Below are positions 5,926-30,800 of a DNA stretch of 64,000 nt, one piece after another. Source of the DNA: an uncultured Bacteroidia bacterium. Its GTDB lineage: Bacteria; Bacteroidota; Bacteroidia; Bacteroidales; UBA932. The position numbers and the translations under genes were made by a program. How positions within the stretch are numbered: position 1 is the first letter of the stretch; each line of letters opens with the position of its first letter. Below the pieces are notes generated by a model. It was not told the origin of the DNA. It worked only from the letters and a program-made list of their open reading frames with translations, and ran no database searches. The stretch covers positions 1 through 64,000 of the forward strand of contig CACXNA010000016.1 in NCBI GenBank assembly GCA_902768985.1, given 5' to 3'.

Positions 5926-6846
5926 ATGGCATCGCTTCGCGAAATAAAAGACCGGATCGGGTCGGTCCGCAGCACGCTGAAGATCACTTCGGCGATGAAG
6001 CTCGTGGCCTCCGCGAAGCTCCGCAAGGCGCAGAAGGCCATCGAAGCCTTGCGGCCTTATGAGCGTACCCTCGCGGAAATCTATACGGCGATTGGATCTG
6101 CCGGGCCGGCAGCTGCCCCTTCTCCGCTATCGAGCTCCGCTTCGCTGACGCTCGACCCTGTCCGGGTGAACGGCTCCGAAGGGGCACTGCCGTTCCCGGC
6201 AGACCGTGTGACACCTACAGCAGTCGTGGCGATTGCGTCCAACAGTTCTCTGTGCGGCGGGTTCAACGCGAACGTGGTCCGCAAGGCGCTGGAGACCATC
6301 CGCGGCTGTGAAGGCGCGGTGGAGGTCTATCCGCTGGGGCGGAAGATGGCCGAGGCGCTGCGCCGCGCCGGCTACACCGCCGACCGGGACTACAACGACC
6401 TCGTCGGTCACCCGTCCTATGAGCAGTCCGCCGCCCTGGCGCGCAGCCTCGCCGAGCGTTTCGAACGCGGCGAGCTCGCCCGCGTGGTGCTGGTCTACAC
6501 CAGCTTCGTGTCGGCCTCCCGCCAGGAGCCCGTCGCGGAGACGTATCTGCCGTTCTCTGCGTCATACGCCGGCTTGACCGGTGAATCCCCCGAAGAGGAG
6601 TACCTCCTCGAGCCGGATGCGGCGGCGCTGACCGCGCAGCTGCTCCCGCAGGTGATGCTGCTGAAATTCCACGCGGCCATTCTGGATTCCGCAGCCGCGG
6701 AGCAGGCCGCCCGCACGCTTGCGATGCAGACCGCGACCGACAACGCCGAGGATCTGCTCGGCGAGCTCACGCTCGAATACAACAAGGGGCGCCAGCAGAA
6801 GATCACCGCCGAGATCCTCGATCTCCTCGGCGGCTCTCAGCAATAG
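5926..6846 (+). CDS. atpG: ATP synthase F1 subunit gamma, with in-frame repeat insertion
   Basis: Gamma subunit, the central rotor shaft (306 aa). The N-terminal helix (REIKDRIGSVRSTLKITSAM), the SSLCGGFNANV motif and the C-terminal helix (ARTLAMQTATDNAEDLL) are intact. Residues ~59-93 are encoded by a 102-bp palindromic element (6101-6202) that also lies inside manA. It sits between the N-terminal helix and the first strand of the globular domain, a surface loop where extra sequence could be tolerated. As the only gamma gene in an otherwise intact operon it is presumably functional. Last gene of the operon; facing inverted repeats follow. Confidence 0.95.
   Translation: MASLREIKDRIGSVRSTLKITSAMKLVASAKLRKAQKAIEALRPYERTLAEIYTAIGSAGPAAAPSPLSSSASLTLDPVRVNGSEGALPFPADRVTPTAVVAIASNSSLCGGFNANVVRKALETIRGCEGAVEVYPLGRKMAEALRRAGYTADRDYNDLVGHPSYEQSAALARSLAERFERGELARVVLVYTSFVSASRQEPVAETYLPFSASYAGLTGESPEEEYLLEPDAAALTAQLLPQVMLLKFHAAILDSAAAEQAARTLAMQTATDNAEDLLGELTLEYNKGRQQKITAEILDLLGGSQQ
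6101..6202 (+). repeat. 102-bp palindromic element, copy in atpG
   Basis: A 102-bp segment that aligns without gaps to 30535-30636 in manA, with under ten visible mismatches. The ends form a long inverted repeat: CCGGGCCGGCAG, one base, then TGCCCCTT at the left, and AAGGGGCA, CTGCCG, TTCCCGG at the right. The element is 34 codons long and is read in the same frame and orientation in both genes. It encodes an Ala/Pro/Ser-rich peptide containing DPVRVNG. Confidence 0.9.
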
Positions 6847-6850
6847 CAAA

Positions 6851-6910
6851 AGATTCCGGGTCAAGCCCGGAATGACTATAAAAAAGTCATTCCAGCGAAC
6901 GCTGGAATCT
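6851..6910. repeat. facing inverted repeats at the atpG / S41 protease convergence
   Basis: Two palindromes, 6851-6877 (AGATTCCGGG, spacer, CCCGGAATGACT) and 6885-6910 (AGTCATTCCAGCG, then CGCTGGAATCT), lie between convergent genes. Each can form a hairpin, and an AT-rich stretch (ATAAAAAAG) lies between them. They probably act as transcription end points for both genes. Related repeats occur at 35602-35648, 45736-45762 and 57195-57255, and inside atpB and metH. Confidence 0.8.
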
Positions 6911-6919
6911 CCTTCCTGT

Positions 6920-8371
6920 TTACGGTAATTTCAGATAAACGCCGAAACCGGGACGGTCGTAGTCCTGGAGAACCGGTGCGTCGTCAGCCCCGGTAGATTC
7001 GAGGCTGTGGGCTGCGGGCGCGGGCGTCGGATAGCCGCACAGGGCGAGCGCGCGGGCCAGCATGTCCTCCTGCGGATCGCCCAGGGGGCAGGGGTTTTTC
7101 GGATTGTCCTTCACGGCGTAGTCCGGCGTCAGGCCGTCCGGCATGCAGCGGGTCACGCCGTCCTTGTCCGCGAAGCGGGCGTACATCAGGTAGAGGGCCC
7201 AATTCTCGGTGTAGCGCTTGCCCTCGTCCGGGTCGACGCCCTTTTCCCGCGACTCGTCGGCCGTCTCCTTGTAGAAATCCGGTCCCCTGAAAAGCCAGCC
7301 GGTGCAGAATTTCCCGTGGGTCTGGGCTCCGACCAGGGTGATGTCCATGTAGGGATACAGGTCGCAGAGCAAGGCTTCCGACGCGGAAGCGGTGCCGGAA
7401 CTGACGATGGCGTACAGCCTGGAGAGCCCGAGATTGGCGTCAGCCGTGGAGAAATCGTATTTCTGGCCGTCGGTGGTTGAAAATTTGAACTCGGTCGTGA
7501 AGTAGCTCCTGTTATCCACGCCTTCCTTCGCATATTGCGCCGTCAGCTTGCTGTTGTATACTTCCGTGGACAGGACGCTTTTGGCCTTGACCTCCGCTTC
7601 GGGGGCCAGCATCGAGGCGAAGAACTGCTCCGCGAGGACGAAGCCGCCGCCGTTGTAGCGCAGGTCGAGGATCAACTCGCTGACGCCGGCCTGCTTGAAG
7701 GCCTTGCAGATGCTGATCAGGTCTTTGTAGGAGTCCAGGGTGAAGCTCGTGTAGGCCAGGTAGCCTACCTTCTTGCCGCCGCAGTCGAAGATCTTGCTGA
7801 GCAGGACGGGATTCTCGTACATGTCGCGGGCGGTCAGTTGGATGGTCGCGCCGGACTTCATGCCGAGGGTCACCCGGTCTTTGTTGCGGAGTGCCTGCTT
7901 GATGAAGGCGGAGTAGTCCTGGGTGGGGATTGGGCTGCCGTTCAGCGAGGTGATGGCGTCGCCGCGCTTCAGGCCCGCTTCCTCCGCGGGGCTGCCCGCA
8001 TAGGTGTAGAGCACGATGAGCTGCGCGGCGGACAGATCCATGCCTACCTCGAAGCCGAAACCCTTCCGGTGGCCGGTCGTGCTGTCATAGAAGCTGTCAA
8101 CATCGTCCGTGAGCAGGGTCCAGCGGTCGTCCCGGTAACGGACGGATTGCACTTTCGCAATCGGTTCGTCCGCGGTTTTCCAGTCCTTGAGCGCCGCAGC
8201 CACTTCCTCGTTCCAGAGGTAGTATTGATTGATGCGGTTGAACGCAAAGGTGTTGACATAGAGATAGACCTTCCGCTGCTCCGTCTGCTCCGGCAGGGTC
8301 GAATCCTTGTTGCAGCCGGCGAAGCAAAGCCCCAGCAGGAGTATCGTCAGAATACCGATCTTTGTCTTCAT
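6920..8371 (-). CDS. S41 family C-terminal-processing peptidase, lipoprotein
   Basis: Secreted serine protease of the S41 (Tsp/CtpA-like) family, 483 aa. A lipoprotein signal peptide (ILLLGLCFAGC) starts the protein. A PDZ domain follows (YAGSPAEEAGLKRGDAITSL), then the S41 catalytic domain with LDLRYNGGGFV and the serine motif GTASASE at about residues 326-332. The catalytic lysine is probably in the GKFCTG motif downstream. The ATG at 8371 was chosen because it gives a clean lipoprotein signal; the frame is open 42 codons further upstream without a signal. A TATATTTG box lies only 6 nt before this ATG. The substrate is unknown; surface protein turnover or peptide use are both possible. Confidence 0.9.
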   Translation of the reverse strand: MKTKIGILTILLLGLCFAGCNKDSTLPEQTEQRKVYLYVNTFAFNRINQYYLWNEEVAAALKDWKTADEPIAKVQSVRYRDDRWTLLTDDVDSFYDSTTGHRKGFGFEVGMDLSAAQLIVLYTYAGSPAEEAGLKRGDAITSLNGSPIPTQDYSAFIKQALRNKDRVTLGMKSGATIQLTARDMYENPVLLSKIFDCGGKKVGYLAYTSFTLDSYKDLISICKAFKQAGVSELILDLRYNGGGFVLAEQFFASMLAPEAEVKAKSVLSTEVYNSKLTAQYAKEGVDNRSYFTTEFKFSTTDGQKYDFSTADANLGLSRLYAIVSSGTASASEALLCDLYPYMDITLVGAQTHGKFCTGWLFRGPDFYKETADESREKGVDPDEGKRYTENWALYLMYARFADKDGVTRCMPDGLTPDYAVKDNPKNPCPLGDPQEDMLARALALCGYPTPAPAAHSLESTGADDAPVLQDYDRPGFGVYLKLP

Positions 8372-8377
8372 GGCAAG

Positions 8378-8385
8378 CAAATATA
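8378..8385 (-). promoter_or_regulatory. -7 box for the S41 protease
   Basis: Perfect TAnnTTTG match (TATATTTG on the minus strand) ending 6 nt before the start codon. Transcription would begin almost at the ATG. The -33 element is not clear. Confidence 0.5.
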
Positions 8386-8791
8386 GCGATTCCACAGGGA
8401 AAAAACCATAAATTAGGGGTGCGAGGTAACACTTTTTCAGGGAGAAAGGCGCGGAAAAGGGCTCGTTGTGAAGAGGATTCAAAACGCTTGAAATCAACCT
8501 ATTAGCGAGGGAGCGCGTATTTATTAAAAAAATTCAATATTAATGTTTGGAAGGGAATTTAAAAATTTGCTTACAATCCGAAATTTAAAATCTTCAAAAC
8601 TCGCAGATTCTTCCGATTTTGGCCTTGAATTCGCTCTTTGGCTCAATTCGTTACGCGATTACGAATTTGGAATTCTAAATTTTTTTTCCGACATTGCGCC
8701 AAAATTGCGTGTTCCCAAGCCGGAACACCAGTTGCAGGTTGACTATATAATTAGGTTAGTATAGTTTATTGTTTAATTAAAGTATCTGCTT
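8386..8791. other. AT-rich intergenic region before susC
   Basis: About 400 bases between the divergent S41 and susC genes, clearly richer in A and T than its surroundings, with several runs such as AAATTTAAAA and AATTTTTTTTCC. A 73-codon open frame (8543-8764) is present, but its composition is that of spacer DNA and I do not call it a gene. The susC promoter should lie here, probably in the segment 8730-8770, but no good TAnnTTTG match is visible. The long leader could hold regulatory sites for an ECF sigma or other activator. Confidence 0.5.
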
Positions 8792-11700
8792 ATGAAAAAA
8801 GCAAAACTGTTCTTCAGCACCCTGTTTGTGCTGCTTGGCGTGACGCTTGCCGCACAGAACGTGCAGGTTTCCGGCGTCGTTCGCGAGAGCAACGGAGATG
8901 CTGTTACAGGTGTAGCCGTGCAGCTTAAGGGCAGCACGACCATCTATGCGATGACGGATGTCTACGGTAACTACCGGATCACGGTCCCGTCCAATGGCAC
9001 CCTCACCTACACTTGTCTTGGTTTCAAGACCCTTGAGGTCCCTGTGGCCGGACGTGCCGTCATCGATGTCACCCTCGAGGCCGACACCGAAATGCTTTCC
9101 GAGACCATCGTCGTGGCCTTCGGTAAGTCGACGAAGGAGGCCTTTACCGGTTCCGCCAAGGTGCTCGACGACGAGAAGCTTTCGCTCTCTCAGGTCGCCA
9201 GCGCCACGAACGCTCTCGCCGGCCAGGTGGCCGGTGTGCAGCTGGTTTCCTCCAACGGCGCTCCGGGTTCCTCCGCCACCATCCGCGTGCGTGGTATCTC
9301 CTCCATCAACGCCGGTAAGGATCCGCTCATCGTCGTGGACGGTGTGCCTTACGACGGCGACATGAACAACATCGCCCCGAGCGATATCGAGTCCATGACC
9401 GTCCTCAAGGATGCTGCTTCCAACGCCCTGTACGGCGCCCGTGGTGCCAACGGTGTGATCATGATCACCACCAAGAAGGGTAAGGTCGGCCAGGCCGTGG
9501 TGTCCCTCGACGCCAAGGTCGGTTTCAACACCCGGGCCCTCCAGGAGTACGAAACCATCAGCGATCCGCGCGCCTACTACGAGCAGCACTACAAGGCTCT
9601 CTATAACTACTATACCGCCGCCACCACCGCTGACGGTCTCGGCCTGACGGCTGACGAGGCTTACATGCGTGCGAACGACAACCTGTTCGACGTCACCGCC
9701 GGTGGTCTGGGCTACCAGACTTACACCTTCCCGGCCGGCGAGTATGCCATCGGCCGCAACGGCAAGTTCAACCCGAACGCCACCGAGGGCTACCAGCTGG
9801 GTGACTTCCTGGTGAAGTCCGACAACTGGGCCAACGAGGTGTACCGCAAGGGTCTCCGCCAGGAGTACACGCTCACCATCTCCGGTGCGCAGAACCGCCT
9901 GTCCTACTTCTCCTCCCTCAGCTACCTGAGCAACAACGGTATCGTCGAGAACTCCGACCACAAGCGTCTGGCCGCCCGTCTGAAGGCTGACTATCAGGCC
10001 AAGGACTGGCTCAAGGTCGGCGCCAACATGTCCTATACCAAGTTCAACTTCAACCAGCTGAGCAACAACGGTACCGAAGGTTCGACCGGTAACATCTGGG
10101 CCTACACGTCCCAGATCGCCCCGATCTATCCGCTCTATATCCGCAACGCCGACGGTTCCCAGTACTACGACGTGAACGGCATCGCCGTCCTCGATCACGG
10201 TAACGGCAACCTCAACACCGGCGGTATCCCGGGCACGTCCCGTCCTTTCATCACGGACGCCAACCCGATCCTCGCCAACAAGTACAACACGAACAATGCG
10301 GAAGGTAACGCGCTCTCCGCGCAGGGCTACATCGACATTGACATCGTCAAGGGCCTGACCCTGACCATCAATGCTTCCGCAACGCTTGACGAGACCCGCT
10401 CCAACTACGTCTACAACCCGTACTACGGGCAGTTCCGCACCACGGGCGGTACCGTCAGCGTGGGCCACACCCGCAGCTATGCCTGGAATGCCCAGCAGCT
10501 CCTCAACTACACCCGTGACTTCGGTCAGCACTCCGTGAGCGCGCTCCTTGGCCACGAGTACTACAGCCGCAAGTACTACTATCTGGATGCTTCCAAGAGC
10601 CACATGTTCTCCCAGAGCAATAAGGAGCTCAACGGCGCCGTTGTGGATACCCAGGGTGCGTCTTCCTATCAGACCCACTACAACAACGAGGGTTACTTCA
10701 CCCGCATCCAGTACGATTACGCTGACCGTTACTTCCTGTCCGGTTCCTTCCGTTTCGACGCTTCTTCCCGCTTCGCTCCGGCCCGCCGCTGGGGTAAGTT
10801 CTGGAGCGTCGGTGCCGCCTGGATCATGAGCAAAGAGAGCTGGTTCAACGCTCCTTGGATTGACGAGTTCAAGCTCAAGGCTTCCGTTGGTAGCCAGGGT
10901 AACGACTCCGTCGGTTCCTACCGCTACACGGATATCTTTGAAATCGTCCCGTCCGACGGCGAGGTGTCCACGATCTTCTCCAGCAAGGGTAACCCCGAGA
11001 TCACCTGGGAGACCAACACCAACATCAACGCCGGTATCGAGTTCTCCTTCCTCCGCCGCCGCATCAGCGGTACCATCGAGTTCTTCAACCGCAAGACCAC
11101 GGACATGCTGTTCCCGACGCCGGTCGCCCCGTCCCAGGGTTACGACGAACTGTGGAAGAATATCGGTGACATGAACAACCGCGGTGTGGAAGGCGACTTC
11201 TACTTCGGTATCATCGACACGCGTGACGTCCAGTGGGACTTCAACCTGAACGTGTCCTACCTGAATAACAAGATTGCTTACCTCGCTGACAATGTGAAGG
11301 ACTCCGTCCGCTACGACTCCGAGGGCAACGCCTACGAGGGCTACACCAGCGGCAACTTCTTCTACGCTGAGGGCATGCCGATGTACACCTGGTACACCTA
11401 CGAGTATGCCGGTGTCGACCAGACCACGGGTAAGTCCCTCTGGTACAAGGATATCCTTGACGACAACGGTGTGCCTACGGGTCGCGAGACCACCGACGAG
11501 TACTCCAAGGCCACGCGCTACGTGACCGGCAAGAGCACCCTCGCTCCGATCTTCGGCGGTTTCGGTACCAGCCTCCGCGCCTACGGTTTCGACTTCGCCG
11601 TGAACTTCACCTACCAGCTCGGTGGTTGGCAGTACGACGGCACCTACGCGCGCTTCATGTACTCCCCGACCTCCAACTCGACTGGCTACAACTACCACAA

Positions 11701-12034
11701 GGATCTGCTGAACGCCTGGACGCCGACGAACAAGAGCACGACCATCCCGCGCTTCCAGTACGGTGATACCTACTCCAACTCTCACTCCACGCGCTTCCTG
11801 ACCTCTGCTTCCTACCTGACCCTGCAGAACATCAATGTCGGCTACACCTTCCCGGAGAAGCTGACGTCCAACATCCAGATCAGCGCGCTGAGACTCTACC
11901 TCGCCGTTGAGAACGTGTTCTACTGGTCCGCTCGCAAGGGCTTTGACCCCAGCCAGAGCTATTCTTCCGCATCCAACGCTACGAGATACGCTCCGATGAG
12001 AACGTTCTCCGCCGGTGTTACGCTTAAATTCTAA
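8792..12034 (+). CDS. SusC/RagA-family TonB-dependent outer membrane receptor
   Basis: Outer membrane importer of the SusC family, 1080 aa, energised by TonB. It has a signal peptide (to about residue 21) and a carboxypeptidase-regulatory-like beta domain (VSGVVRESNGDAVTGVAV to about residue 95). Next come a TonB-box-like segment (ETIVVAFG), a plug domain with the SusC hallmark ASNALYGARGANGVIMITTK, and a large barrel ending in Phe (VTLKF). It pairs with the SusD-like gene 18 nt downstream. Codons are strongly biased to GGT, CGT and TCC, suggesting high expression. No glycoside hydrolase lies nearby, so the substrate cannot be assigned; the protease genes downstream hint at peptides, but this is inference. 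Confidence 0.96.
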   Translation: MKKAKLFFSTLFVLLGVTLAAQNVQVSGVVRESNGDAVTGVAVQLKGSTTIYAMTDVYGNYRITVPSNGTLTYTCLGFKTLEVPVAGRAVIDVTLEADTEMLSETIVVAFGKSTKEAFTGSAKVLDDEKLSLSQVASATNALAGQVAGVQLVSSNGAPGSSATIRVRGISSINAGKDPLIVVDGVPYDGDMNNIAPSDIESMTVLKDAASNALYGARGANGVIMITTKKGKVGQAVVSLDAKVGFNTRALQEYETISDPRAYYEQHYKALYNYYTAATTADGLGLTADEAYMRANDNLFDVTAGGLGYQTYTFPAGEYAIGRNGKFNPNATEGYQLGDFLVKSDNWANEVYRKGLRQEYTLTISGAQNRLSYFSSLSYLSNNGIVENSDHKRLAARLKADYQAKDWLKVGANMSYTKFNFNQLSNNGTEGSTGNIWAYTSQIAPIYPLYIRNADGSQYYDVNGIAVLDHGNGNLNTGGIPGTSRPFITDANPILANKYNTNNAEGNALSAQGYIDIDIVKGLTLTINASATLDETRSNYVYNPYYGQFRTTGGTVSVGHTRSYAWNAQQLLNYTRDFGQHSVSALLGHEYYSRKYYYLDASKSHMFSQSNKELNGAVVDTQGASSYQTHYNNEGYFTRIQYDYADRYFLSGSFRFDASSRFAPARRWGKFWSVGAAWIMSKESWFNAPWIDEFKLKASVGSQGNDSVGSYRYTDIFEIVPSDGEVSTIFSSKGNPEITWETNTNINAGIEFSFLRRRISGTIEFFNRKTTDMLFPTPVAPSQGYDELWKNIGDMNNRGVEGDFYFGIIDTRDVQWDFNLNVSYLNNKIAYLADNVKDSVRYDSEGNAYEGYTSGNFFYAEGMPMYTWYTYEYAGVDQTTGKSLWYKDILDDNGVPTGRETTDEYSKATRYVTGKSTLAPIFGGFGTSLRAYGFDFAVNFTYQLGGWQYDGTYARFMYSPTSNSTGYNYHKDLLNAWTPTNKSTTIPRFQYGDTYSNSHSTRFLTSASYLTLQNINVGYTFPEKLTSNIQISALRLYLAVENVFYWSARKGFDPSQSYSSASNATRYAPMRTFSAGVTLKF

Positions 12035-12037
12035 TTG

Positions 12038-12045
12038 TAAGGAGG
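12038..12045 (+). promoter_or_regulatory. consensus Shine-Dalgarno site before the susD-like gene
   Basis: TAAGGAGG lies 7 nt before the ATG at 12053. This is a perfect Shine-Dalgarno sequence, unusual in Bacteroidota, where most genes lack one. It is the only such site I noticed in the window. Confidence 0.75.
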
Positions 12046-12052
12046 ATTATTT

Positions 12053-13759
12053 ATGAAAAAAACAATAATATCTCTGCTTGTGGCGGCTGCCGCCGTGTCT
12101 GTCCTGCCGGGTTGCATCCAGGAGACTTTCCCGCTCGAGGGTGTTGCCACCTCCGATCAGATGGCCGAGTCCTCTGCCGCCATGAAGGGTTCCGTGGACG
12201 GTATGGTCGCTCAGACCTATCAGCCGTACTATTTCTATGGCAGCAGCAACCAGCTGGAGTATGATATCTCCTACGCCGGTCTGCTGATCACCTACGCTCG
12301 TATGACCAACGACCTGGTCAACAACTCCGCCACGATCGGTTATGACTGGTGGTGCGGTTACGCTGGCGTGTCCGGTTATGTCATGAACGCTGACAACGCC
12401 CGTCAGAGGGTTCCGTACATGACCCTGTACAAGATCATCAAGAGTGCGAACGATATCATCGGCCCGCTGGCCGCTGCGGAGAATCTGAACGCTGAACAGA
12501 AGATCTACCTCGGCACCGCGTATGCCTACCGTGCCCTGATGTATCACGACCTTTACAACATGTACCTGCCGGCTGCCAACAAGTACACCGACGTGTCCGC
12601 TGTGGAAGGCCTGACGACTCCGATCGTCCTCTCCAGCGCCGAGCCTGAGTCTGAGTACAAGACCGCCCGCGCACCGAAGGAAGCGATGTCCGCGCAGGTG
12701 CTTTCCGACCTCGACAAGGCGGAGGAGCTCCTTGATGGCTACAAACCGGCGACCGCCCGCTATCCCGGCATCGCCGTCGTCTACGGCCTCAAGGCCCGTA
12801 TGTACCTGGCCATGTCCGACTATGCCAACGCTGCCACGTACGCCCGCATGGCGATCGACGCTTCCGGCAAGACCCCGCTGACGGAGGAGCAGTGGCACAA
12901 CCCCAAGCAGGCCTTCTGCGACGCCAACGGCAATAACTCCTGGATGTGGTACTACTCCATCTCCGGCAACAACATGGGTAACCTCTGCAACCCGACCGGC
13001 TTCCTCGCCGGCGAGTCTGACTGGGGCTACAACTCCCTGACCCACCTGGCCATCCACAAGTGGCTCTATGACCGTCTGAACCGCAGCGACTTCCGCAAGC
13101 GCTCCTTCATCGATCCGGACCGCGAGACCTATCCGGCTTCCTACTATGAGTGGGGCGATCAGGCCGGCTTCCTGAAGGACTATCCGTTCGCGAAGCTTCC
13201 GAACTACTTCTCCCTAAAGATCCGCTGCAGGGAAGGCAACTGGCAGACCTACTCCGTCGGTGGCGCCGTCGACTGGCCGATCATGCGCGTTGAGGAAATG
13301 TACCTCATCGAGGCTGAGGCTGTCGGTATGAGCCAGGGCGAGGCCAAAGGTATCGAGAAGCTGGAGGCCTTCATGCAGACCTACCGCGATCCGCAGTACT
13401 CCTACGCTCAGGCCGCTTCGACCTTCGACCAGGGCTTCGTCAAGAACTTCCAGGAGGAGGTGCTCTTCCAGAAGCGTGTCGAGTTCCTGGAGGAAGGTGT
13501 CGGCTTCTTCGATGCCAAGCGTATCCGTCCGGGCATGAAGACCTGGTACAAGGGTTCGAACGTGATCCACGACCGTGCGAAGTACGACATCGAGGAAGTG
13601 AGCCCGTACTGGAACTTCGTGATTCCGACGAGCGAAATCGAGAACAACGACTACATCGTCAAAGAGGATGATGTCGTCACCGAGATCGAAGGTGTCAAGA
13701 CGACCCGCAACAACCCGGATCCGACCGACAAGGTGAAGACCATCACGACCAAGTTTTAG
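12053..13759 (+). CDS. SusD/RagB-family surface lipoprotein
   Basis: Substrate-binding lid of a SusC/SusD transporter, 568 aa. The lipoprotein signal ends at the cysteine in SVLPGC. SusD features include the TPR-like helices (IYLGTAYAYRALMYHDLYNMY), the KSANDIIGPL region and the C-terminal RVEFLEEGVGFFDAKR motif (family form: ER..EL..EG.R..D..R). The gene follows susC by 18 nt and has a strong Shine-Dalgarno site. Expected location is the outer leaflet of the outer membrane, capping the SusC barrel. Confidence 0.96.
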   Translation: MKKTIISLLVAAAAVSVLPGCIQETFPLEGVATSDQMAESSAAMKGSVDGMVAQTYQPYYFYGSSNQLEYDISYAGLLITYARMTNDLVNNSATIGYDWWCGYAGVSGYVMNADNARQRVPYMTLYKIIKSANDIIGPLAAAENLNAEQKIYLGTAYAYRALMYHDLYNMYLPAANKYTDVSAVEGLTTPIVLSSAEPESEYKTARAPKEAMSAQVLSDLDKAEELLDGYKPATARYPGIAVVYGLKARMYLAMSDYANAATYARMAIDASGKTPLTEEQWHNPKQAFCDANGNNSWMWYYSISGNNMGNLCNPTGFLAGESDWGYNSLTHLAIHKWLYDRLNRSDFRKRSFIDPDRETYPASYYEWGDQAGFLKDYPFAKLPNYFSLKIRCREGNWQTYSVGGAVDWPIMRVEEMYLIEAEAVGMSQGEAKGIEKLEAFMQTYRDPQYSYAQAASTFDQGFVKNFQEEVLFQKRVEFLEEGVGFFDAKRIRPGMKTWYKGSNVIHDRAKYDIEEVSPYWNFVIPTSEIENNDYIVKEDDVVTEIEGVKTTRNNPDPTDKVKTITTKF

Positions 13760-13778
13760 GGAATAAAAAAGTAGTGAT

Positions 13779-14681: not shown

Positions 14682-14702
14682 TTTCCGAACAGGATTTTAA
14701 TC

Positions 14703-23900: not shown

Positions 23901-24251
23901 AGCTTCATTGAGAACGACAGCTACCTCAGCTCCCACCGCGGACAGTACTCCGAGCGCGGCGCCAAGGCCGCTCCCTGGATGAGCCGTATCAATGTCAAGA
24001 TCGCCCAGGATATCATCGTGAACATCGCTAACAAGCCCACGACCCTGCAGATCGGTGTTGATATCAACAACTTCGCCAACCTGCTGAACTCCAACTGGGG
24101 TCTGTGTAAGCAGGTCAGCAGCGAGAATATTCTTGAGATCAGCAAGGCCAACGAAACCGGTGTTTACACCTTCAACGCTCCGACCGTCAAGAACTATCGC
24201 AGCACCTTCAACACCTGGCAGATGCTCTTCAGCGCCCGTCTGTTCTTCTAG
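20937..24251 (+). CDS. Oar-like TonB-dependent outer membrane receptor
   Basis: 1104-aa outer membrane protein with a signal peptide (ending SAAAQ) and a carboxypeptidase-regulatory-like domain (GGHVTDKDGAVAGATVIAI). A plug-like region contains the Oar signature NVTPFDVRHSGFTGGAINAV (here MSVNITPFDVRHSGFTGGA) and VTKSGTNEFHAS. A long barrel ends in FSARLFF. Unlike the SusC gene at 8792 it has no SusD partner. Codons are strongly optimised, suggesting abundant expression. The ATG at 20937 gives the signal peptide; ten upstream codons are in frame but unlikely. The substrate is unknown. A strong terminator follows. Confidence 0.93.
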   Translation: MKQAFKSVLLSVAAMLFVVSAAAQVTTSSFGGHVTDKDGAVAGATVIAIYQPTSSTYYALTDKNGNYRINNVTPGGPYTVTISMLGYRSDENKNLYAPLGETLVVDSVLEEDSINLDAAVFVADGNLSNMNIHRSGAGTSVSQGTISNLPTVSRSMNDVMKLTPQASSTSNGLAIGGGNYRSSYMTVDGAAFNNAFGIGSNLPAGGAPISLDAIEQMSVNITPFDVRHSGFTGGAINAVTKSGTNEFHASVYDYYTSQAVRGYKVEGEDLNKTDFLDNTVGFTVGGPIVKNKLFFFVNAEYSSDVVPGSSKVVSTAAGRVDPNFEPNKDVVRPTQQFMDEVLSYLDKTYGYNPGRYQGYSISTPDYKVMARLDWNINDNNKLNLRFSHTHNATASSPSNSVNPINPNPYNRNTYGRTSTYSQYFESNRYTTDMNFTSVAAELNSRIFDGRGTNMFRATWSHQNEPRGFVGGNFPTVDILEPYIDDKGKSNKAVLTSFGPDPFTYGNLRDVQTVVVTEELTYTTGIHNLIGGLQYEYDNTKNGYMQGGLGYYVYDSWEDFVAGGKPTAFAITHSNRDDLAQVYPSFDYHQASAYIQDEITFSDYFKLTVGLRAELPFFPNIAGNVNKEFLGLAAGSQSMKGMSTGDMPKARLNLSPRIGFNWDVLKNRKLVVRGGSGLYTGRIPFVWIVSVAGNSNCLQAQFIDTDGTNEHTPNFHANVEDILKDIYGGTFKAQNLAAPTGATILDKTLQMPTTWKSSLAVDFDLPWGIKGSVEGIFNYDLNSVAALRLGYTQDSGIQLPGEPAKRAHFTSENIKNSMNSTVAPYYLTNCNLHGTYYSVTAQLSKVFPFGLSLMAAYTRADSKSIQEGYGDQVSSLFSGGNYGVNGSNVPELGHSAFVSPNRVIANVSYRIPEGKHLATTIGVFYEGYNHCYVGSYSYTRYSYTFGVRSGSYVNDVTGVSGSQNLMYIPTDAELANMPFSSEENKAAFKSFIENDSYLSSHRGQYSERGAKAAPWMSRINVKIAQDIIVNIANKPTTLQIGVDINNFANLLNSNWGLCKQVSSENILEISKANETGVYTFNAPTVKNYRSTFNTWQMLFSARLFF

Positions 24252-24274
24252 TCCAGGATTTAGGATATGAGTTA

Positions 24275-24306
24275 GCGGCCCGGTTCCTCCGGGCCGCTTT
24301 CTTTTT
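24275..24306 (+). terminator. terminator after the Oar-like receptor
   Basis: GCGGCCCGG (24275-24283) pairs with CCGGGCCGC (24289-24297) across a 5-base loop, followed by TTTCTTTTT. A strong intrinsic terminator. Confidence 0.92.
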
Positions 24307-24319
24307 CCCGAAAAAGCCG

Positions 24320-24327
24320 TATCTTTA
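24320..24327 (+). promoter_or_regulatory. possible -7 box for the DNA/RNA endonuclease gene
   Basis: TATCTTTA differs from TAnnTTTG at the last base. It lies 22 nt before the ATG at 24350, or 7 nt before an in-frame GTG at 24335. The latter spacing matches that of several other genes here and could indicate a GTG start. Confidence 0.4.
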
Positions 24328-24349
24328 TCTCGTTGTGGCCTTCGGAAAG

Positions 24350-25231
24350 ATGAGAGTTGCCGTGCATATCTGTTTCCTGCTGCTGCCGGTGTCCCTGCTG
24401 GTGGCGCTTTGCTCCTGTGGAGATCCCCTGACGGAACCCCGCCGGGAACTGCAGGCGGATACGCCGGGCAGGTGGCTGGAACTGCCGGCGACGGATACGC
24501 CCGGCATGGTTTTCATCCACCATCCTATGCCGGAAGACCGCCGGTTGCGGAATTATTCCTATTGTTATGATCCCCGGGCCCGTGTGGCCGTGTGGGTCGC
24601 ATATCCGCTGAACAAAGGCTTGCGGGGGAGCGGGTCGCGCCCGGACCCGGAGCCCTGGGGGCTGGATCCCAAGGTCCCGGCGGATGCCCAGGCCGTAGTT
24701 CTGTACCATGGTTTCTCGAAGAACAAAATTTACGACCGCGGCCATCAGATTCCTTCGGCCGACCGATATGCCTACGGCGCGAACGCTGAGACGTATTACG
24801 GGACGAACATAACGCCGCAACTGCATGATTTCAACGGCGGGATCTGGGCGACGCTGGAAGGGAAGGTCCGCAACTGGGCCGGCAAATGTGATACGCTCTA
24901 TGTCGTGACGGGTGCTGACCTACGGGGCGCCTCCGGGAAGGTGAAAGACAACGAAGGGAAGGATGTCACGGTGCCGACGGGCTATTTCAAGGCGCTTCTG
25001 GCGTATAAGAAAGGAGGATCCTTTGGTGCGGGGACCGGGGAATACATCGGCGTGGGTTTCTATTTCGAGCACCGCACATATGAAAATACACAGGCGACGG
25101 TCAAGGCCCGGGCCATGAGTTTGGAAGCCCTGGAAGAAATACTAGGTATGGGTTTCTTCGTGAACCTTCCGGTCGATATCCAGCGTGTCGTCGAGTCTCA
25201 GTCTCCAGTTGCCTGGTGGTGGAACAACTAA
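24350..25231 (+). CDS. DNA/RNA non-specific endonuclease lipoprotein (NUC1 family)
   Basis: 293-aa predicted lipoprotein (VSLLVALCSC, then GDP). The nuclease core has the catalytic YDRGHQIPSADR motif of the beta-beta-alpha-metal NUC1 family, then ETYYGTNITPQ and FNGGIWATLE, which supply the metal-binding Asn and flanking residues. YVVTGADL follows. Such enzymes cut both DNA and RNA; the lipoprotein signal places it outside the cytoplasm. A GTG at 24335 would add five residues. It is followed 27 nt later by a second predicted extracytoplasmic nuclease, which suggests nucleic acid scavenging. Confidence 0.9.
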   Translation: MRVAVHICFLLLPVSLLVALCSCGDPLTEPRRELQADTPGRWLELPATDTPGMVFIHHPMPEDRRLRNYSYCYDPRARVAVWVAYPLNKGLRGSGSRPDPEPWGLDPKVPADAQAVVLYHGFSKNKIYDRGHQIPSADRYAYGANAETYYGTNITPQLHDFNGGIWATLEGKVRNWAGKCDTLYVVTGADLRGASGKVKDNEGKDVTVPTGYFKALLAYKKGGSFGAGTGEYIGVGFYFEHRTYENTQATVKARAMSLEALEEILGMGFFVNLPVDIQRVVESQSPVAWWWNN

Positions 25232-25244
25232 CGGATTTTATTCG

Positions 25245-25252
25245 TATCTTTA
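25245..25252 (+). promoter_or_regulatory. possible -7 box for the EEP nuclease gene
   Basis: TATCTTTA, one mismatch from TAnnTTTG, ending 6 nt before the ATG at 25259. It would give a near-leaderless transcript separate from the upstream nuclease gene. Confidence 0.42.
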
Positions 25253-25258
25253 CAAGTT

Positions 25259-26335
25259 ATGAATATCAAGCGCTTATTATTCATTACCGCCGCGCTGGTC
25301 CTGCTGGGGGCCTGCGGGCAGACGCTCCCCAAAGACGCCTACGTGGTCGGCTTCTACAATGTCGAGAACCTCTTCGACACGGAGCACGACGAAGGCAAGA
25401 ACGACCTGGCCTTCACCCCGGAAGGGGAGAATGCCTGGACGCCGGAGAAATATGAGCTGAAGCTCGCCAACATTGCGTCCGTGATCGCCGCGATGGCGGA
25501 AAAGAACGGCCGCTGGCACACGCTCCTGGGCCTCGCCGAGGTCGAGAACGACCGCGTGCTCGCGGACCTCGTGGCGCGCCCGGAGATCGCCGAGGCGGGG
25601 TACAAGTTCATCCACGTGGAGGGGCCGGACGTGCGCGGCATCGACTGCGCGCTGCTCTACCGGCCGGAAGAATTCAAGGTGGTGGACGTCCGCGCGCTGC
25701 CTTACGATTTCAACAGCGCGAGCGGTATCGTCTTCGAGAAGACCCCCGAGGAGCAGGCCGAGTTCAAGACGCGCGACGTGCTTTGCGTGCGCGGCGTGCT
25801 GGACGGTGAGGTGTTCGCGGTGTATGTGTGCCACTGGCCGTCCCGTACGGGCAACAAGGGCAGCGACCTGCGCTGCCGCGCCGCGGAAATTGTCCGGGAG
25901 GACATCTTCACGCTGGAGCAGCGCTTCGAGAACATCAACATCGTCGTGATGGGCGACATGAACGACAACCCGGAGGACGTCAGCATGACGGACTACCTGC
26001 GCGGCCGCGAGACCATCGAGGAGATGGCCGAGGGTGAGCTTTTCTCCCCGTTCCTGCGCATGCACAAAGACGGTTTCGGCACGGAGGAGTACCACGGCGA
26101 GTGGAACATCTTCGACTGCATCTGCGTGAACCGCTGCCTGGTGGACACCGACGCGAAGGGCAGCCTGCACATCCTCAAGAGCGACGACACGCACTACGGC
26201 TACGTCTTCAACCCGCCTTTCCTGGTCCAGCAGGATGGCCGCTACGCCGGCACGCCCTTCCGGACCTTCTCCGGCGGGCAGTTCATCAACGGCTACTCCG
26301 ACCATTACCCCACGTATATAGTAATCAGTAAATAA
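25259..26335 (+). CDS. endonuclease/exonuclease/phosphatase family lipoprotein
   Basis: 358-aa predicted lipoprotein (ALVLLGACG) with the EEP fold: GFYNVENLFDT at the start of the domain, LLGLAEVEND with the metal-binding Glu, VCHWPSRTGNKG, VVMGDMNDNPED and the final SDHYP histidine. The family includes DNases and phosphodiesterases; many Bacteroidota carry such secreted members. The next gene (M3 peptidase) starts at the base after its stop codon, so the two are probably co-transcribed. Confidence 0.9.
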   Translation: MNIKRLLFITAALVLLGACGQTLPKDAYVVGFYNVENLFDTEHDEGKNDLAFTPEGENAWTPEKYELKLANIASVIAAMAEKNGRWHTLLGLAEVENDRVLADLVARPEIAEAGYKFIHVEGPDVRGIDCALLYRPEEFKVVDVRALPYDFNSASGIVFEKTPEEQAEFKTRDVLCVRGVLDGEVFAVYVCHWPSRTGNKGSDLRCRAAEIVREDIFTLEQRFENINIVVMGDMNDNPEDVSMTDYLRGRETIEEMAEGELFSPFLRMHKDGFGTEEYHGEWNIFDCICVNRCLVDTDAKGSLHILKSDDTHYGYVFNPPFLVQQDGRYAGTPFRTFSGGQFINGYSDHYPTYIVISK

Positions 26336-28336
26336 ATGAAAAAAGTTTTCGCTATCGCAGCCCTTTTTGTTGCCATGACTGCTTGCAACAACCACGTGAA
26401 CCCCTTCCTGACGGAATGGGACACCCCCTACGGCATTCCGCCGTTCGATAAGATCCAGCCCGCCGACTATATCCCTGCCGTCCAGGCAGGCATTGACCAG
26501 CAGAACGCAGAGATCGACGCCATCACCGCCAATCCCGATGCGCCGACCTTCGAGAACACCATCGCTCCGCTGGAGCTCTCCGGCGAGATCCTCTCCAAGG
26601 TCGTCGGCGTGTTCTACAATATCACCGAGACCGACCGAACCGACGCGCTGAGCGCCATCGAGGAGGAAGTCATCTCCATGATGAGCGAGCACAGCAACAA
26701 CATGTCCTTCAACAAGGCGCTCTACAACCGCGTGGCCGCCGTCTACAACAGCGACCAGAGCGGCCTGACCCGCGAGCAGCAGGTCGTGCTGAAGAAGCAC
26801 TTCGACGCCTTCGAGCGCGAGGGCATCGGCCTCCCGGAGGAGCAGCAGGCGCGCCTGCGCCAGATCAACGCCGATATCGCCGCCAAGACGCAGAAGATCG
26901 GCAACAACATCCTCGCCGAGTCCAATGGTTTCCTCGAGAAATTCGGCTTCAGCGTGGCCGCCTATCCCGACAAGATGACCTCCACGGAGGACCGCGAGCT
27001 GCGCCGCCAGTACAACGAGGCGTACACCGCCCGCGGCCACCGCGGCAATGAGTTCGACAACCGCCAGCTCCTGCTGGAGGTGCTCGACCTGCGCGCCGAG
27101 AAGGCGAAGATCCTCGGCTACCCGAATGCTGCCGCATACATCCTCGCCAACAAGATGGCGGGCGACACCAAGACCGTCGACAGCTTCCTTGACGGTATCA
27201 TGAAGGCCGCCGTGGCCCGCGCCAAGACGGAGTTGGCCGATATGCAGGCCGTGATGGACCAGGAGGTCAAGGAAGGCAAACTGCCGGCCGGCTCGAAGAT
27301 CGAGCCCTGGGACTGGTGGTACTACGCCGAGAAGGTCCGCAAGGCTAAGTATGACCTCGACGAGGCCCTCACGAAGCCTTATTTCCACGTTGACAACGTC
27401 GTGAACGGCATCTTCACCAACGCCCACATCCTTTATGGTGTGAACTTCGAGGAACTGAAAGACGTCCCCGTGTACAACCCGCAGGTGCGCGCCTACAAGG
27501 TTACGGCCGCCGACGGTTCCCTGCTGGGTATCTTCACGACCGACTATAAGCCCCGCGCCAGCAAGCGCGGCGGCGCCTGGATGAACAACGTCCGCGAGCA
27601 GTACGTCAAGGCTGACGGCACCGAGGTCCGCCCGATCATCGTAAACGTCTGCAATTTCTCCGACGACTACCTCTCCATCGACGAGGTGGAGACCGCCTTC
27701 CACGAATTCGGCCACGCCCTGCACGGCCTGCTGACCCAGTGCCACTACTCCTCCGTGAGCGGCACGAACGTGACCCGCGACTTCGTCGAAATGTTCTCCC
27801 AGTTCAACGAGAACTGGGCCTTCCAGCCCAGCCTGCTCGCGCAGTACGCGAAGAACGCCGCCGGCGAGCCGATCCCGGCCGAGCTGGTGCAGAAGATCCT
27901 GAACGCCAAGAAGTTCAACCAGGGCTTCATGACCACCGAGCTCTGCGCCGCCTCCATCCTCGACATGCGCTGGCATGAGCTGGAGAGCACGAAGGGCGTG
28001 GACATCGACGCCTTCGAGCAGAAGATTGCCGAGGAGATCGGCCTGATCCCGGAGATCACCTACCGCTACCGTTCGACCTACTTCAACCATATCTTCTCCA
28101 GCGGCTACGCCGCCGGTTACTACGGCTACCTCTGGGCCGAGGTCCTCGACAAGGATGCCTTCAGCATCTTCGCCGCCTCCCCGGCTGGTCCGTACGACCT
28201 CGAACTCGCCAAGAAGTTCAAGGAGACCTTCCTGGAGAAGGGTGGCTCCGAGGAGCCGATGACGCTCTACAAGGCGTTCGCCGGCCGCGAGCCCGACTCC
28301 GCCGCCATGCTCCGCGGCCGCGGTTTAATAGATTAA
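26336..28336 (+). CDS. M3 family metallopeptidase, lipoprotein (Dcp-like)
   Basis: 666-aa zinc peptidase of the oligopeptidase A / dipeptidyl carboxypeptidase family. The active-site motif FHEFGHALHG is at residues ~455-464 (HExxH at 456-460), and the downstream glutamate is in RDFVEMFSQ. The N-terminus is a lipoprotein signal (ALFVAMTACNN), so the enzyme acts in the periplasm or at the surface on short peptides. Full length for the family. It starts immediately after the EEP nuclease stop and is followed 13 nt later by gpmI. Confidence 0.94.
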   Translation: MKKVFAIAALFVAMTACNNHVNPFLTEWDTPYGIPPFDKIQPADYIPAVQAGIDQQNAEIDAITANPDAPTFENTIAPLELSGEILSKVVGVFYNITETDRTDALSAIEEEVISMMSEHSNNMSFNKALYNRVAAVYNSDQSGLTREQQVVLKKHFDAFEREGIGLPEEQQARLRQINADIAAKTQKIGNNILAESNGFLEKFGFSVAAYPDKMTSTEDRELRRQYNEAYTARGHRGNEFDNRQLLLEVLDLRAEKAKILGYPNAAAYILANKMAGDTKTVDSFLDGIMKAAVARAKTELADMQAVMDQEVKEGKLPAGSKIEPWDWWYYAEKVRKAKYDLDEALTKPYFHVDNVVNGIFTNAHILYGVNFEELKDVPVYNPQVRAYKVTAADGSLLGIFTTDYKPRASKRGGAWMNNVREQYVKADGTEVRPIIVNVCNFSDDYLSIDEVETAFHEFGHALHGLLTQCHYSSVSGTNVTRDFVEMFSQFNENWAFQPSLLAQYAKNAAGEPIPAELVQKILNAKKFNQGFMTTELCAASILDMRWHELESTKGVDIDAFEQKIAEEIGLIPEITYRYRSTYFNHIFSSGYAAGYYGYLWAEVLDKDAFSIFAASPAGPYDLELAKKFKETFLEKGGSEEPMTLYKAFAGREPDSAAMLRGRGLID

Positions 28337-28349
28337 CAATTAAACGATT

Positions 28350-29863
28350 ATGAATAGAAAAGTACTCCTGATGATCCTCGACGGTTGGGGCGAGGGCAAA
28401 CACGATTATTCCAACGCCATCTGGGCGCAGGGCACGCCGGTCATCGACGGCCTGCGTGCGAAATATCCTTCCGGCCACCTGCAGGCCTGCGGCGAATACG
28501 TCGGTCTGCCGGACGGGCAGATGGGCAACTCCGAGGTCGGCCACATGAACCTGGGCGCCGGCCGCGTGGTCTACCAGGACCTCGTCAAGATCAACATGGC
28601 CGTCCGCGACCACAAGTTCCTGGAGAACGCCGAGATCAAGGCGGTCTATGACTATGTGAAGAATTCCGGCAAGAAGCTCCACCTGATGGGCCTCACCTCC
28701 CACGGCGGCGTGCACTCCTCCCTGGAGCACGTGTACGAATTCCTTCGCGTGGCGAAGGAGTACGGCCTGGACAAGGTCTACGTCCACGCCTTCATGGACG
28801 GCCGCGACACCGATCCGCGCAGCGGCAAGGGTTTCCTCGAGGAGCTCGAGGGGAAGATGGCCGAGACCACGGGCAAGATCGCTACCGTGTGCGGCCGCTT
28901 CTACGCGATGGACCGCGACAAGCGCTGGGCCCGCGTCAAGGAGGCCTACGACAGGGCAAGGGCGCTGCCTTTACGTCCGCGCTGGAGGGCATCCAGGCGT
29001 CCTACGACGCCGATGTGACCGATGAATTCGTCAAGCCGATCGTCATCACCGACGCCGCGGGCGCTCCGCTCGCGAAGATCGAGGAGGGCGACGCCATCAT
29101 CTTCTACAACTTCCGCAACGACCGCGCCCGCGAGCTGACGTCCGTGCTCACGCAGAAGGACATGCCGGAAGAGGGGATGCACACCCTGCCGCTGTACTAC
29201 TGCTGCCTGACCCCGTACGACGCCTCCTTCACCGGCGTGCACATCCTCTTCGACAAGGAGCTGGTGAACGACACCCTCGGCGAGACGGTCTCCAAGGCCG
29301 GCAAGCGCCAGCTGCGCATCGCCGAGACGGAAAAATACGCCCACGTGACCTTCTTCTTCAACGGCGGCCGCGAGCTGCAGTTCGAGAATGAGGACCGCAT
29401 CCTGGTGAACTCCCCGAAGGTGCCGACCTACGACCTGCTGCCGCAGATGAGCGCCCCCGAGGTGGCCGAGAAACTGATCGACGCCATCAACTCCGACAAG
29501 GAGGACCTCATCATCCTGAACTTCGCCAATGGCGACATGGTGGGTCACACGGGCGTCTACACCGCCGTCACCAAGACGGTCGAGTGCATCGACAAGCTCG
29601 TCGGCAAGGTGGTTGAGGCGGCCATCGCCCACGACTACGTGGTCCTGCTGACGGCCGACCACGGCAACGCCGACTTCGAGGTGAACCCCGACGGCACGCC
29701 GAACACGGCCCACTCCCTGAACACGGTGCAGTTCGTCGTGATGAACGCCGGCGACGCCGTGAAGACGGTCAAGGACGGTGCCCTGTGCAACGTGGCGCCG
29801 ACCATCCTCAAGCTCATGGGTATCCCGCAGCCGGCCGCGATGACGGCCGAGCCGCTGATCTAA
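28350..29863 (+). pseudogene. gpmI: phosphoglycerate mutase (cofactor-independent), frameshifted
   Basis: Interconverts 3- and 2-phosphoglycerate in glycolysis. The N-terminal part (28350-28952) reads LLMILDGWGEGK, GNSEVGHMNLGAGRVVYQDL and [16 protein letters not shown], then leaves frame. The rest (28955-29863) continues in another frame from [14 protein letters not shown] through [10 protein letters not shown] and ADHGNADFE to the normal C-terminus. At 28952-28955 the residues usually found between EAYD and GKGAA (about four) are replaced by two bases, equivalent to a net deletion of about 10 bp. The enzyme is normally essential and the rest is well conserved, so an assembly error or a very recent mutation is more likely than old decay. 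Confidence 0.88.
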
Positions 29864-29870
29864 AGATCCT

Positions 29871-30800
29871 ATGTATAAGTTCACGCCGATTCTCAAGACG
29901 CTGGTCTGGGGCACGGAGAGCTGGGTGCTCTCCGGTGTCCCGGGCAGCGAATCGGTGGTGGCTGAAGGCCCCGAAGCGGGCAAGAAGATCACGGACATCT
30001 ATCCCGGGACTTTCCCGCTGCTGATCAAATTCATCGACGCGAAGCGCGACCTCAGCATCCAGGTCCATCCGGACAACGAGCTGGCCGCAAAGCGCCACGG
30101 CTGCAGCGGCAAGTCGGAGATGTGGTACGTGATCGGCGCCGAACCCGGCGCAAAACTGATTTCCGGTCTGAAGGAGCGGATCACCCCCGACGACTACGTC
30201 CGCCTGGTGGCGGAAGACCGCATCACCGAGGTGCTGGCGGAGCATGCCGTCGCTCCCGGCGACGTCTTCTTCCTGCCCTCCGGCCGCATCCATTCCATCG
30301 GCGGCGGCTGCTTCCTGGCGGAGATCCAGCAGACCTCCGACATCACCTACCGCATCTACGATTACAACCGTCCCGGATTGGACGGCAAGCCGCGCCAACT
30401 GCACACGCAGGAGGCGAAGGATGCGATTGATTACGAGGTGTATGAAAATTACCGGACGCCGTACGCCCTGAAGCCGAACGCGCCCGTCGAGCTGGTGAAG
30501 TGCGAGCACTTCACCACGACGCTGTACGACTTCGCCGGGACGGCAGCTGCCCCTGCTCCGCTATCGTGCTCCGCTTCGCTGACGCCCGACCCTGTCCGGG
30601 TGAACGGCTGCGCAGGGGCACTGCCGATCCCGGCTGAGTTCCTGATAGCGATTGGGTTGAAGGGATCGGGCGTCCTGCGAACGGCGCAGGACGAGACGAC
30701 GCTGTCGGCAGGTGAAGCCGTGCTTATTCCGGCTTCCGACGGCTCCGTGTGCGTCGAGCCGGGGCCGGACGGCCTTCGGATGATGACGACGCACCCTTAG
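29871..30800 (+). CDS. manA: mannose-6-phosphate isomerase, with in-frame repeat insertion
   Basis: Type I phosphomannose isomerase (309 aa), interconverting mannose-6-P and fructose-6-P. Zinc ligands are visible in IQVHPDNE, GKSEMWYVI and SGRIHSIGGG. The N-terminal loop after LVWG is shorter than in Bacteroides homologues. Residues ~222-256 are encoded by a 102-bp palindromic element (30535-30636) that also occurs inside atpG. It falls at the start of the C-terminal cupin domain, between TLYDFAG and the strand FLIAIGLKG. The remaining C-terminus (LSAGEAVLIPAS) is intact. It starts 7 nt after gpmI; its 3' end overlaps the convergent rnr. Confidence 0.92.
   Translation: MYKFTPILKTLVWGTESWVLSGVPGSESVVAEGPEAGKKITDIYPGTFPLLIKFIDAKRDLSIQVHPDNELAAKRHGCSGKSEMWYVIGAEPGAKLISGLKERITPDDYVRLVAEDRITEVLAEHAVAPGDVFFLPSGRIHSIGGGCFLAEIQQTSDITYRIYDYNRPGLDGKPRQLHTQEAKDAIDYEVYENYRTPYALKPNAPVELVKCEHFTTTLYDFAGTAAAPAPLSCSASLTPDPVRVNGCAGALPIPAEFLIAIGLKGSGVLRTAQDETTLSAGEAVLIPASDGSVCVEPGPDGLRMMTTHP
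30535..30636 (+). repeat. 102-bp palindromic element, copy in manA
   Basis: Gapless match to 6101-6202 in atpG. Ends: CCGGGACGGCAG, C, TGCCCCTGC at the left, and GCAGGGGCA, CTGCCG, ATCCCGG at the right, forming arms of about 20 bp. An inner segment holds GCTCCGCTTCGCTGACG and CCTGTCCGGGTGAACGG, also present in atpG. It is read in the same frame as the atpG copy, adding 34 codons. Confidence 0.9.

What the first reader, a model, noticed from the sequence alone, without database searches (positions are those of the whole stretch)
6101..30636. A 102-bp palindromic element inserted in frame in two unrelated housekeeping genes (atpG and manA)
6101-6202 (atpG) and 30535-30636 (manA) align over 102 bases without a gap and with under ten visible differences. 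The ends form a long inverted repeat. In both genes the element has the same orientation and the same reading frame, and 102 bp is 34 codons, so each protein gains a near-identical Ala/Pro/Ser-rich peptide with DPVRVNG. Both sites are between conserved blocks (after the N-terminal helix of gamma; at the edge of the C-terminal cupin of ManA). This parallels the Rickettsia palindromic elements that create peptides within proteins, which I do not know to be described in Bacteroidales. The matching frame suggests selection for copies that can be translated, or a mobile module adapted to coding sequence.
Basis: partly seen in the sequence, partly recalled or inferred. Interest (0 to 1): 0.92.

Follow-up and report, generated by a model that had tools for sequence, protein, structure and literature searches.

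The report
Palindromic DNA repeats translated inside genes
Two housekeeping genes of an uncultured Bacteroidales bacterium carry copies of one hairpin-shaped repeat that, read from the DNA, adds a short loop to each protein, and related species carry many such repeats inside genes in reading frame, which suggests that mobile DNA often builds new protein loops in this group.

Summary
Observation confirmed. Window 6100-6203 (atpG) and 30534-30637 (manA) are 92% identical copies of a palindromic element, with the same orientation and the same frame. The genome holds 7 clear copies. Five lie in genes (atpG, manA, a YfhO-like gene, an MFS gene, the C-terminus of ligA), all five in frame. Relatives in the genus carry it too, plus a denser sister type (R2): a near-invariant 38-nt core between inverted arms that differ from copy to copy yet stay 95% complementary. 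R2 copies sit mostly inside genes (atpB, atpG, ligA, murB, murE, dnaX, dnaG, polA, uvrA, rsmH and others). All 27 copies with clearly coding flanks on both sides are in frame and stop-free; the other 86 could not be judged by that test. Sites without the element exist in manA, atpB and yfhO. In other species the same loops hold other repeat families. Core orientation differs between species at several sites, which suggests in-place flipping. It works like Rickettsia palindromic elements, but in Bacteroidales, more strictly intragenic and nearly locked to one phase. How it moves is unknown: no transposase could be tied to it and no target duplication was seen. New variant of a known kind.

The parts
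5926..6846 (+). atpG (ATP synthase gamma subunit), host gene
   Evidence: 306 aa, Pfam ATP-synt residues 3-304, E 9.7e-80
6097..6122 (+). left arm of the palindromic element in atpG
   Evidence: pairing computed (26 nt); fold
6123..6177 (+). core (two small hairpins) of the element in atpG; its first base is codon position 3 (phase 1)
6178..6203 (+). right arm of the element in atpG
29871..30800 (+). manA (mannose-6-phosphate isomerase, type I), host gene
   Evidence: 309 aa; Pfam PMI_typeI_cat and MPI_cupin_dom; PDB 1qwr matched, E 2.4e-32
30534..30556 (+). left arm of the element in manA
30557..30611 (+). core of the element in manA, same frame and orientation as in atpG
30612..30637 (+). 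right arm (and outer pairs) of the element in manA

Best explanation
The element is a non-autonomous mobile palindromic repeat with a conserved hairpin core between long inverted arms. Copies land in genes, and those that survive sit in permissive loops or at protein ends, in frame and without a stop, so the host protein should carry an extra loop of about 25-35 residues, mostly small and hydrophilic. Shown by computation: dispersed multi-copy repeat; structure with covariation; in-frame, open copies in conserved genes; sites with and without it; the same loops used by several repeat families; both core orientations at one site; shrunken remnants. Inferred: (a) arms need only stay complementary, kept so at DNA level (hairpin or cruciform, or template switching) rather than by RNA pairing; (b) the core flips in place between its arms; (c) copies decay to in-frame scars by deletion; (d) the loop is translated and tolerated, with no proven benefit; (e) an enzyme acting in trans, not identified, moves it.
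For: Copies: 7 in the genome; 71 of 400 genus genomes hit model R1 at E 0.01, with only 9 candidates scored per genome. Structure: pairs with a change on both sides, R1 16 of 35 and R2 23 of 32, and covariation score: 0 of 500 shuffles reach either; slid registers fall far below. Frame: 27 of 27 copies with both flanks clearly coding are in frame and stop-free; not all independent, some are orthologues. Host genes: 45 of 48 phase-0 R2 ORFs tested have a Pfam family, including 19 of 20 drawn at random from those not yet tested. Sites without the element: ManA G281, G207, G213; AtpB G223, G289; YfhO site A G000, G251, G259, against filled G058, G108, G308 and G200. Flipping: atpG L121/L122 and L126 share a distinctive core variant in opposite orientations between similar arms; YfhO site B has near-identical outer arms with the core forward in G000 and reverse in G308 and in a shortened copy in G058. 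Remnants: GT loop and YfhO site C of G108, dapF and an ABC-F gene of G000. R2 arms: 54% identical between copies against 94.5% for the core, 95% complementary within a copy.
Against: No target-site duplication or exact insertion boundary could be read; loops are hypervariable and the empty sites diverged. No transposase is linked: PF01797 (Y1) matches occur in 17 of 21 genomes, namely 11 of 12 with R1-model hits and 6 of 9 without, and none in G140 with 13 places. Translation rests on open frames only. Flipping could be independent insertions at one loop. Of 113 copies, 44 had one flank and 41 no flank scored as coding, 1 was too short; atpG itself scored 'neither', so that test is insensitive. 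In 11 of 64 R2 copies the longest spanning ORF was not phase 0: 9 of these have a Pfam family in phase 0, but 2 (L053, L207, one locus) have it in another phase. 'Further pair types' is reached by 13 and 12 of 500 shuffles, and related sequences can exceed shuffles without structure. G-T makes 22 of 70 non-Watson-Crick pairs: no excess, but no proof against RNA pairing. R1 is not stop-depleted (3.2 against 3.17).
Confidence: 0.86

Rival explanations
1. The element is a structured RNA or regulatory motif kept for function in the mRNA, and its in-gene position is incidental.
For: Strong covariation, a branched core and near-invariant junctions.
Against: It sits in many unrelated genes in either orientation; over window 5900-6400 no Rfam family reaches its gathering score; R2 arms show no excess of G-U pairs (22 of 1520 pairs); relatives lack it at the same site.
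Confidence: 0.07
2. The segment is removed before function: a mini-intron, a translational bypass element or an excised peptide.
For: Intervening sequence with a strong hairpin inside essential genes.
Against: Removal would relax frame and stops, yet 27 of 27 clearly coding copies are in frame and open, and remnants also keep the frame.
Confidence: 0.03
3. These are ordinary hypervariable linkers that grew by slippage or local duplication; resemblance between genes is coincidence or local recombination.
For: Loops such as AtpG loop 1 differ in nearly every species aligned.
Against: The same 38- or 55-nt core, between paired arms, recurs in many unrelated genes and genomes.
Confidence: 0.02
4. 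Assembly, binning or contamination artefact.
For: The genomes are in many contigs and some are listed at 4-6% contamination.
Against: Orthologous inserts occur in separate assemblies: manA in G000 and G200; atpB in G019, G141, G271 and G095, whose flanks are 70-84% identical.
Confidence: 0.01

Closest known systems
Rickettsia palindromic elements (RPE) and Wolbachia palindromic repeats
   Same: About 100-150 bp palindromes, several families in one genome, in frame in unrelated ORFs including conserved enzymes (passages read in PMC2229807, and PMC10969869; Wolbachia seen only as a cited title).
   Different: Other phylum; a conserved core between freely varying arms; R2 mostly intragenic, whereas nearly half of the RPEs counted are in ORFs; one dominant reading phase; both orientations at one site. 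I did not check whether RPEs share the last two.
Bacterial MITEs (ERIC, Correia/NEMIS, RUP, YPAL)
   Same: Short, non-autonomous, with inverted repeats; several are fused in frame to ORFs (PMC2229807 passages).
   Different: Described there as primarily intergenic, several with target duplications; none was seen here.
REP/REPIN elements with RAYT (Y1) transposases
   Same: Short dispersed palindromes; Y1 genes are present in the genus.
   Different: REPs are extragenic and flank their RAYT gene (recalled). Here R2 is intragenic, and the flanks of the nine Y1 genes examined lack this core; one of them is flanked by copies of a different repeat.
Integron attC sites (recalled, no call)
   Same: Stem sequence free to vary while pairing and a few bases are kept; recognised as folded single-stranded DNA.
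   Different: No integrase or cassette context was looked for; analogy only.

Membership tests
Rickettsia palindromic element | Palindromic repeat of about 100-150 bp | tested here: met
   R1 101-107 nt in the window, hairpin z about -5.5; R2 shorter, mostly about 80-90 nt
Rickettsia palindromic element | In-frame, stop-free insertion in unrelated ORFs | tested here: met
   27 of 27 copies with two coding flanks, of 113; Pfam hosts
Rickettsia palindromic element | Several palindrome families in one genome | tested here: met
   Three in frame within this window
Rickettsia palindromic element | Sequence homology with an RPE family | not tested
   No RPE model or sequence was searched. Model R2 had no match at E 1e-5 in the other 343 genomes sampled in the order, 12 candidates scored in each listed genome
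Rickettsia palindromic element | Peptide present in the mature protein | not testable with these tools
   Needs mass spectrometry
MITE | Terminal inverted repeats | tested here: met
MITE | Target-site duplication | tested here: inconclusive
   Sites without the element too diverged to fix the boundary
MITE | Parent transposase with matching ends | tested here: inconclusive
   Only PF01797 was searched; other transposase families were not
REP/REPIN-RAYT | Extragenic location | tested here: not met
   R2: 61 of 76 interior to a phase-0 ORF, 8 C-terminal, 4 N-terminal, 3 none; 19 of 20 random ORFs have a Pfam family. R1 in this genome: 5 of 7 in genes
REP/REPIN-RAYT | RAYT gene in the genome flanked by the element | tested here: not met
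   No Y1 match in G140; none of the nine Y1 genes examined is flanked by this core: one loose pattern match (L254) proved to be a different repeat
Rfam structured RNA | Score above a family's gathering threshold | tested here: not met
   Window 5900-6400 only: 9 matches up to E 10, all below gathering

The most novel reading that the evidence does not exclude
R2 is a mobile element specialised for life inside coding sequence. Its commonest core is stop-free in all six frames; its arms encode the same flanking peptides (consensus AEGETL / ERVSPS) whichever way the core points; its register lets third codon positions of the two arms pair with each other; and nearly every tested copy lies in a gene in one phase. 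Insertion or retention would then be coupled to translation, and loop-building in essential proteins would be a routine, reversible process: insert, flip, shrink to a scar, replace by another family.
Probability: 0.35. Interest if true: 0.9.

Novelty: new variant of a known kind. Interest (0 to 1): 0.78.

Why it matters
Protein-coding palindromes are known chiefly from Rickettsia and Wolbachia, with scattered in-frame MITE fusions elsewhere. Here a large, uncultured genus, found in ruminant stomachs by its record titles, shows the phenomenon widely: several repeat families reuse the same loops of ATP synthase, sugar, cell-wall and membrane proteins, and many sister species supply empty, filled, flipped and scarred states. 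That makes open questions testable: how such elements move, why frame and phase are so constrained, and how much new protein loop sequence comes from mobile DNA. Such loops can also mislead annotation and phylogeny.

Tried and rejected
Idea that one arm is host target and the other its inverted copy: not supported. At atpB neither arm is seen at the empty sites, and several R1 copies of one relative (L143) share the same arms, so arms travel with the element; growth of the outer arms into flanks stays possible (YfhO site B).

Y1/RAYT as the mover: inconclusive to negative. Virus carriage: the core pattern has 0 exact matches in viral contigs. Rfam on 501 bases around the atpG copy: nothing above threshold. 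Codon usage left 86 of 113 copies undecided, so Pfam was used for hosts. A first regex for cores missed many R1 copies and was replaced. R1 six-frame openness: no depletion. R2 six-frame openness rests largely on its one shared core: with arms shuffled as palindromes and the core kept, 56% of sequences are open in all six frames against 72% observed (55 of 76), and 13.6% of core shuffles are open. No structure prediction was run: its rule does not list loci from the genome search, and a single sequence would give a poor model.
Full report
The observation. The pair at 6100-6203 and 30534-30637 is real: 104 ungapped nt at 92% identity, each a hairpin more stable than all of 200 shuffles. Both host genes are identified (Pfam; PDB relatives). 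In PDB alignments the AtpG insert (residues about 58-93) falls where gamma subunits pass from the N-terminal helix to the globular domain; most matches start or resume at residues 85-99. In ManA (insert about residues 222-256) the significant match to 1qwr ends at residue 225, the later part being insignificant, and Pfam's cupin domain starts at 256.

The family. The genome G000 (2.35 Mb, 28 contigs) has 7 copies at E below 1e-6 (an eighth hit, E 0.6, I discard): atpG, manA, a YfhO-like membrane protein, an MFS permease, the C-terminus of ligA (reverse), upstream of malQ, and a truncated copy with only short ORFs. The 5 in genes are in frame. Short remnant-like matches lie in dapF and an ABC-F gene, also in open frame (E 0.005 and 0.009). 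A DNA query hit 7 of 151 genomes of the genus. A covariance model (R1) hit 71 of 400 at E 0.01, this genome included; only 9 candidates per genome were scored, and many weaker hits are the sister type. A pattern fitting both types found 23 stretches in genome contigs, 22 from six Bacteroidales/Bacteroidia MAGs (titles naming water deer, roe deer and goat stomachs, or RUG isolates) and one from an actinobacterium, probably chance; viral contigs gave 0. The genus is probably Cryptobacteroides: that name is my inference and comes from no call.

The R2 type. Weaker R1 hits showed a sister type with a 38-nt core, TCCGCGTCGCTTCGCGACCCTGTNCGGGCAAATGCTCC. This genome and nine others picked gave 2 to 28 matches to model R2 at E 0.001, some being one place read on both strands; the matches in G000 are its R1 copies. 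From the fetched loci, which favour high scores and are no census, I listed 113 distinct copies: 76 R2, 37 R1 or intermediate. Between R2 copies the arms are 54% identical and the core 94.5%; within a copy, 1450 of 1520 arm pairs are Watson-Crick, 22 G-T, 48 other. On 15 aligned R2 copies all 22 outer pairs show two-sided changes, no shuffle reaches the covariation score, and one-sided G-U variants appear at one of the 22. I read this as complementarity kept at DNA level; that is inference.

Inside genes, in frame. By a codon-usage score trained on long ORFs of the loci, 27 copies had both flanks clearly coding; all 27 were in frame without a stop. 44 had one such flank, 41 none, 1 was too short. 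By ORF geometry 61 of 76 R2 copies are interior to a phase-0 frame, 8 C-terminal, 4 N-terminal, 3 none; one of the 4 and one of the 3 (L053, L207) in fact lie in a gene in another phase. Pfam: 45 of 48 phase-0 R2 ORFs tested have a family: 26 of 28 that I picked and 19 of 20 drawn at random from the rest. The three without are L158, L204 and L163. Some hosts are orthologues of one another, and a domain match does not always span the element; it does in AtpG, RsmH, peptidase M16_C and the MurE N-domain. Hosts include AtpB, AtpG, LigA, MurB, MurE, RsmH, DnaX, DnaG, PolA, an IleRS-like synthetase, UvrA, TruA, TruB, a MiaA-like protein, a FabD-like acyltransferase, a ketoacyl synthase, a FolP-like protein and prephenate dehydrogenase. 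In ligA the C-terminus holds R1 in G000 and R2 in G141.

Phase. All 20 R2 copies in the strict set are read in one phase at the core edge, 13 forward (SSASLRDPVRANAPE) and 7 reverse (SGAFARTGSRSDAEE), although 55 of 76 copies are open in all six frames. Whole-element shuffles give 11% and 2.34 stops per copy against 0.37; with the core kept and palindromic arms shuffled, 56% and 1.11, so much of the openness is that of one shared core. By the longest spanning ORF 53 of 64 are phase 0 (39 forward, 14 reverse). Of the other 11, nine have a Pfam family in phase 0 and two (L053, L207, one locus) a DUF6259 match in reverse phase 1. Because the arms are inverted repeats in this register, both orientations give the same flanking peptides (consensus AEGETL / ERVSPS). 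Common ancestry, peptide-level selection or biased insertion could each cause the lock; I cannot separate them.

Empty, filled, flipped, scarred. ManA: 21 genomes searched, 17 with a match, 12 aligned; five with only distant matches were left out. G281, G207 and G213 have no insert; G000 and G200 hold R1 forward; G364 R1 reverse; G108 and G302 an NYFSDKFAEKPIS-type stretch (G108 diverged and in another reading), which also recurs in AtpG and dapF of relatives; G259 a related partial stretch; G205 [11 protein letters not shown]150 and G097 a short GC-rich palindrome. AtpB N-terminus, 11 sequences read from 14 fetched regions: G223 and G289 empty; R2 in G019, G141, G271, G095; other inserts in G184, G382, G316, G125, G054, not checked as dispersed repeats. 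YfhO site A: empty in G000, G251, G259; reverse R1 in G108, G058 and G200; forward in G308. AtpG has two hypervariable loops with varied in-frame inserts (28 of 30 fetched sequences aligned). The core variant AATACGGGCATATG in opposite orientation in L121/L122 and L126 favours in-place inversion.

Mover. PF01797 matches occur in 17 of 21 genomes (14 over the cut-off), with and without the element, and not in G140. Nine Y1 genes examined are not flanked by the core. Model R2 had no match at E 1e-5 in the other 343 genomes sampled in the order; the listing shows one of the same genus and three of the same family among them. The mover stays unknown.

What is known. RPEs are described as 105-146 bp, in frame in 19 reading frames, with guanylate kinase shown to be translated and active (passages of PMC2229807); a 2024 review gives 44 insertions and nearly half in ORFs (passages of PMC10969869). 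The original RPE papers were not read (one was not held). Six library searches (listings only) showed no title or abstract start on such elements in Bacteroidales; most subscription journals are missing from that library, so this is weak evidence.

Noticed in passing
window 46443-46467 and 46650-46674 (minus), in metH 45767-49459: Two exact copies of GTCATTCCGGGCTTGACCCGGAATC, a different repeat, are in frame (SHSGLDPES) in the methionine synthase gene, one before and one within the activation-domain match.
   Followed up: partly
window 30805-30829: A TCATCCTGAGC...GAAGGATC repeat right after manA is in frame (EILRSAQDD) near the C-terminus of the convergent RNase R-like gene 30727-32943.
   Followed up: partly
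window 35636-35748, 39760-39861, 57095-57200: Another family of about 100-nt repeats with GGCGCCGACC...GGTCGGCGCC arms, 70-91% alike.
   Followed up: no
L254 (G083), around 1226 and 2341: A Y1 transposase gene is flanked on both sides by near-identical copies of a repeat unrelated to R1/R2, as expected of a RAYT with its own REP.
   Followed up: no
L123 (G023 atpG): The AtpG loop of another species holds a 21-bp perfect hairpin around an unrelated loop, TTTGTCCTAAGTTTAT.
   Followed up: no
L009 and L118: A longer stretch read as RGSSSEAKSASADRPA...GGSGD(M/T)PP recurs in frame in an ABC-F gene of G000 and in AtpG of G119.
   Followed up: no
L237 and L238 (G019 contigs C19 and C34): The G019 assembly has two equally good atpG matches on different contigs, perhaps two strains in one bin.
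   Followed up: no
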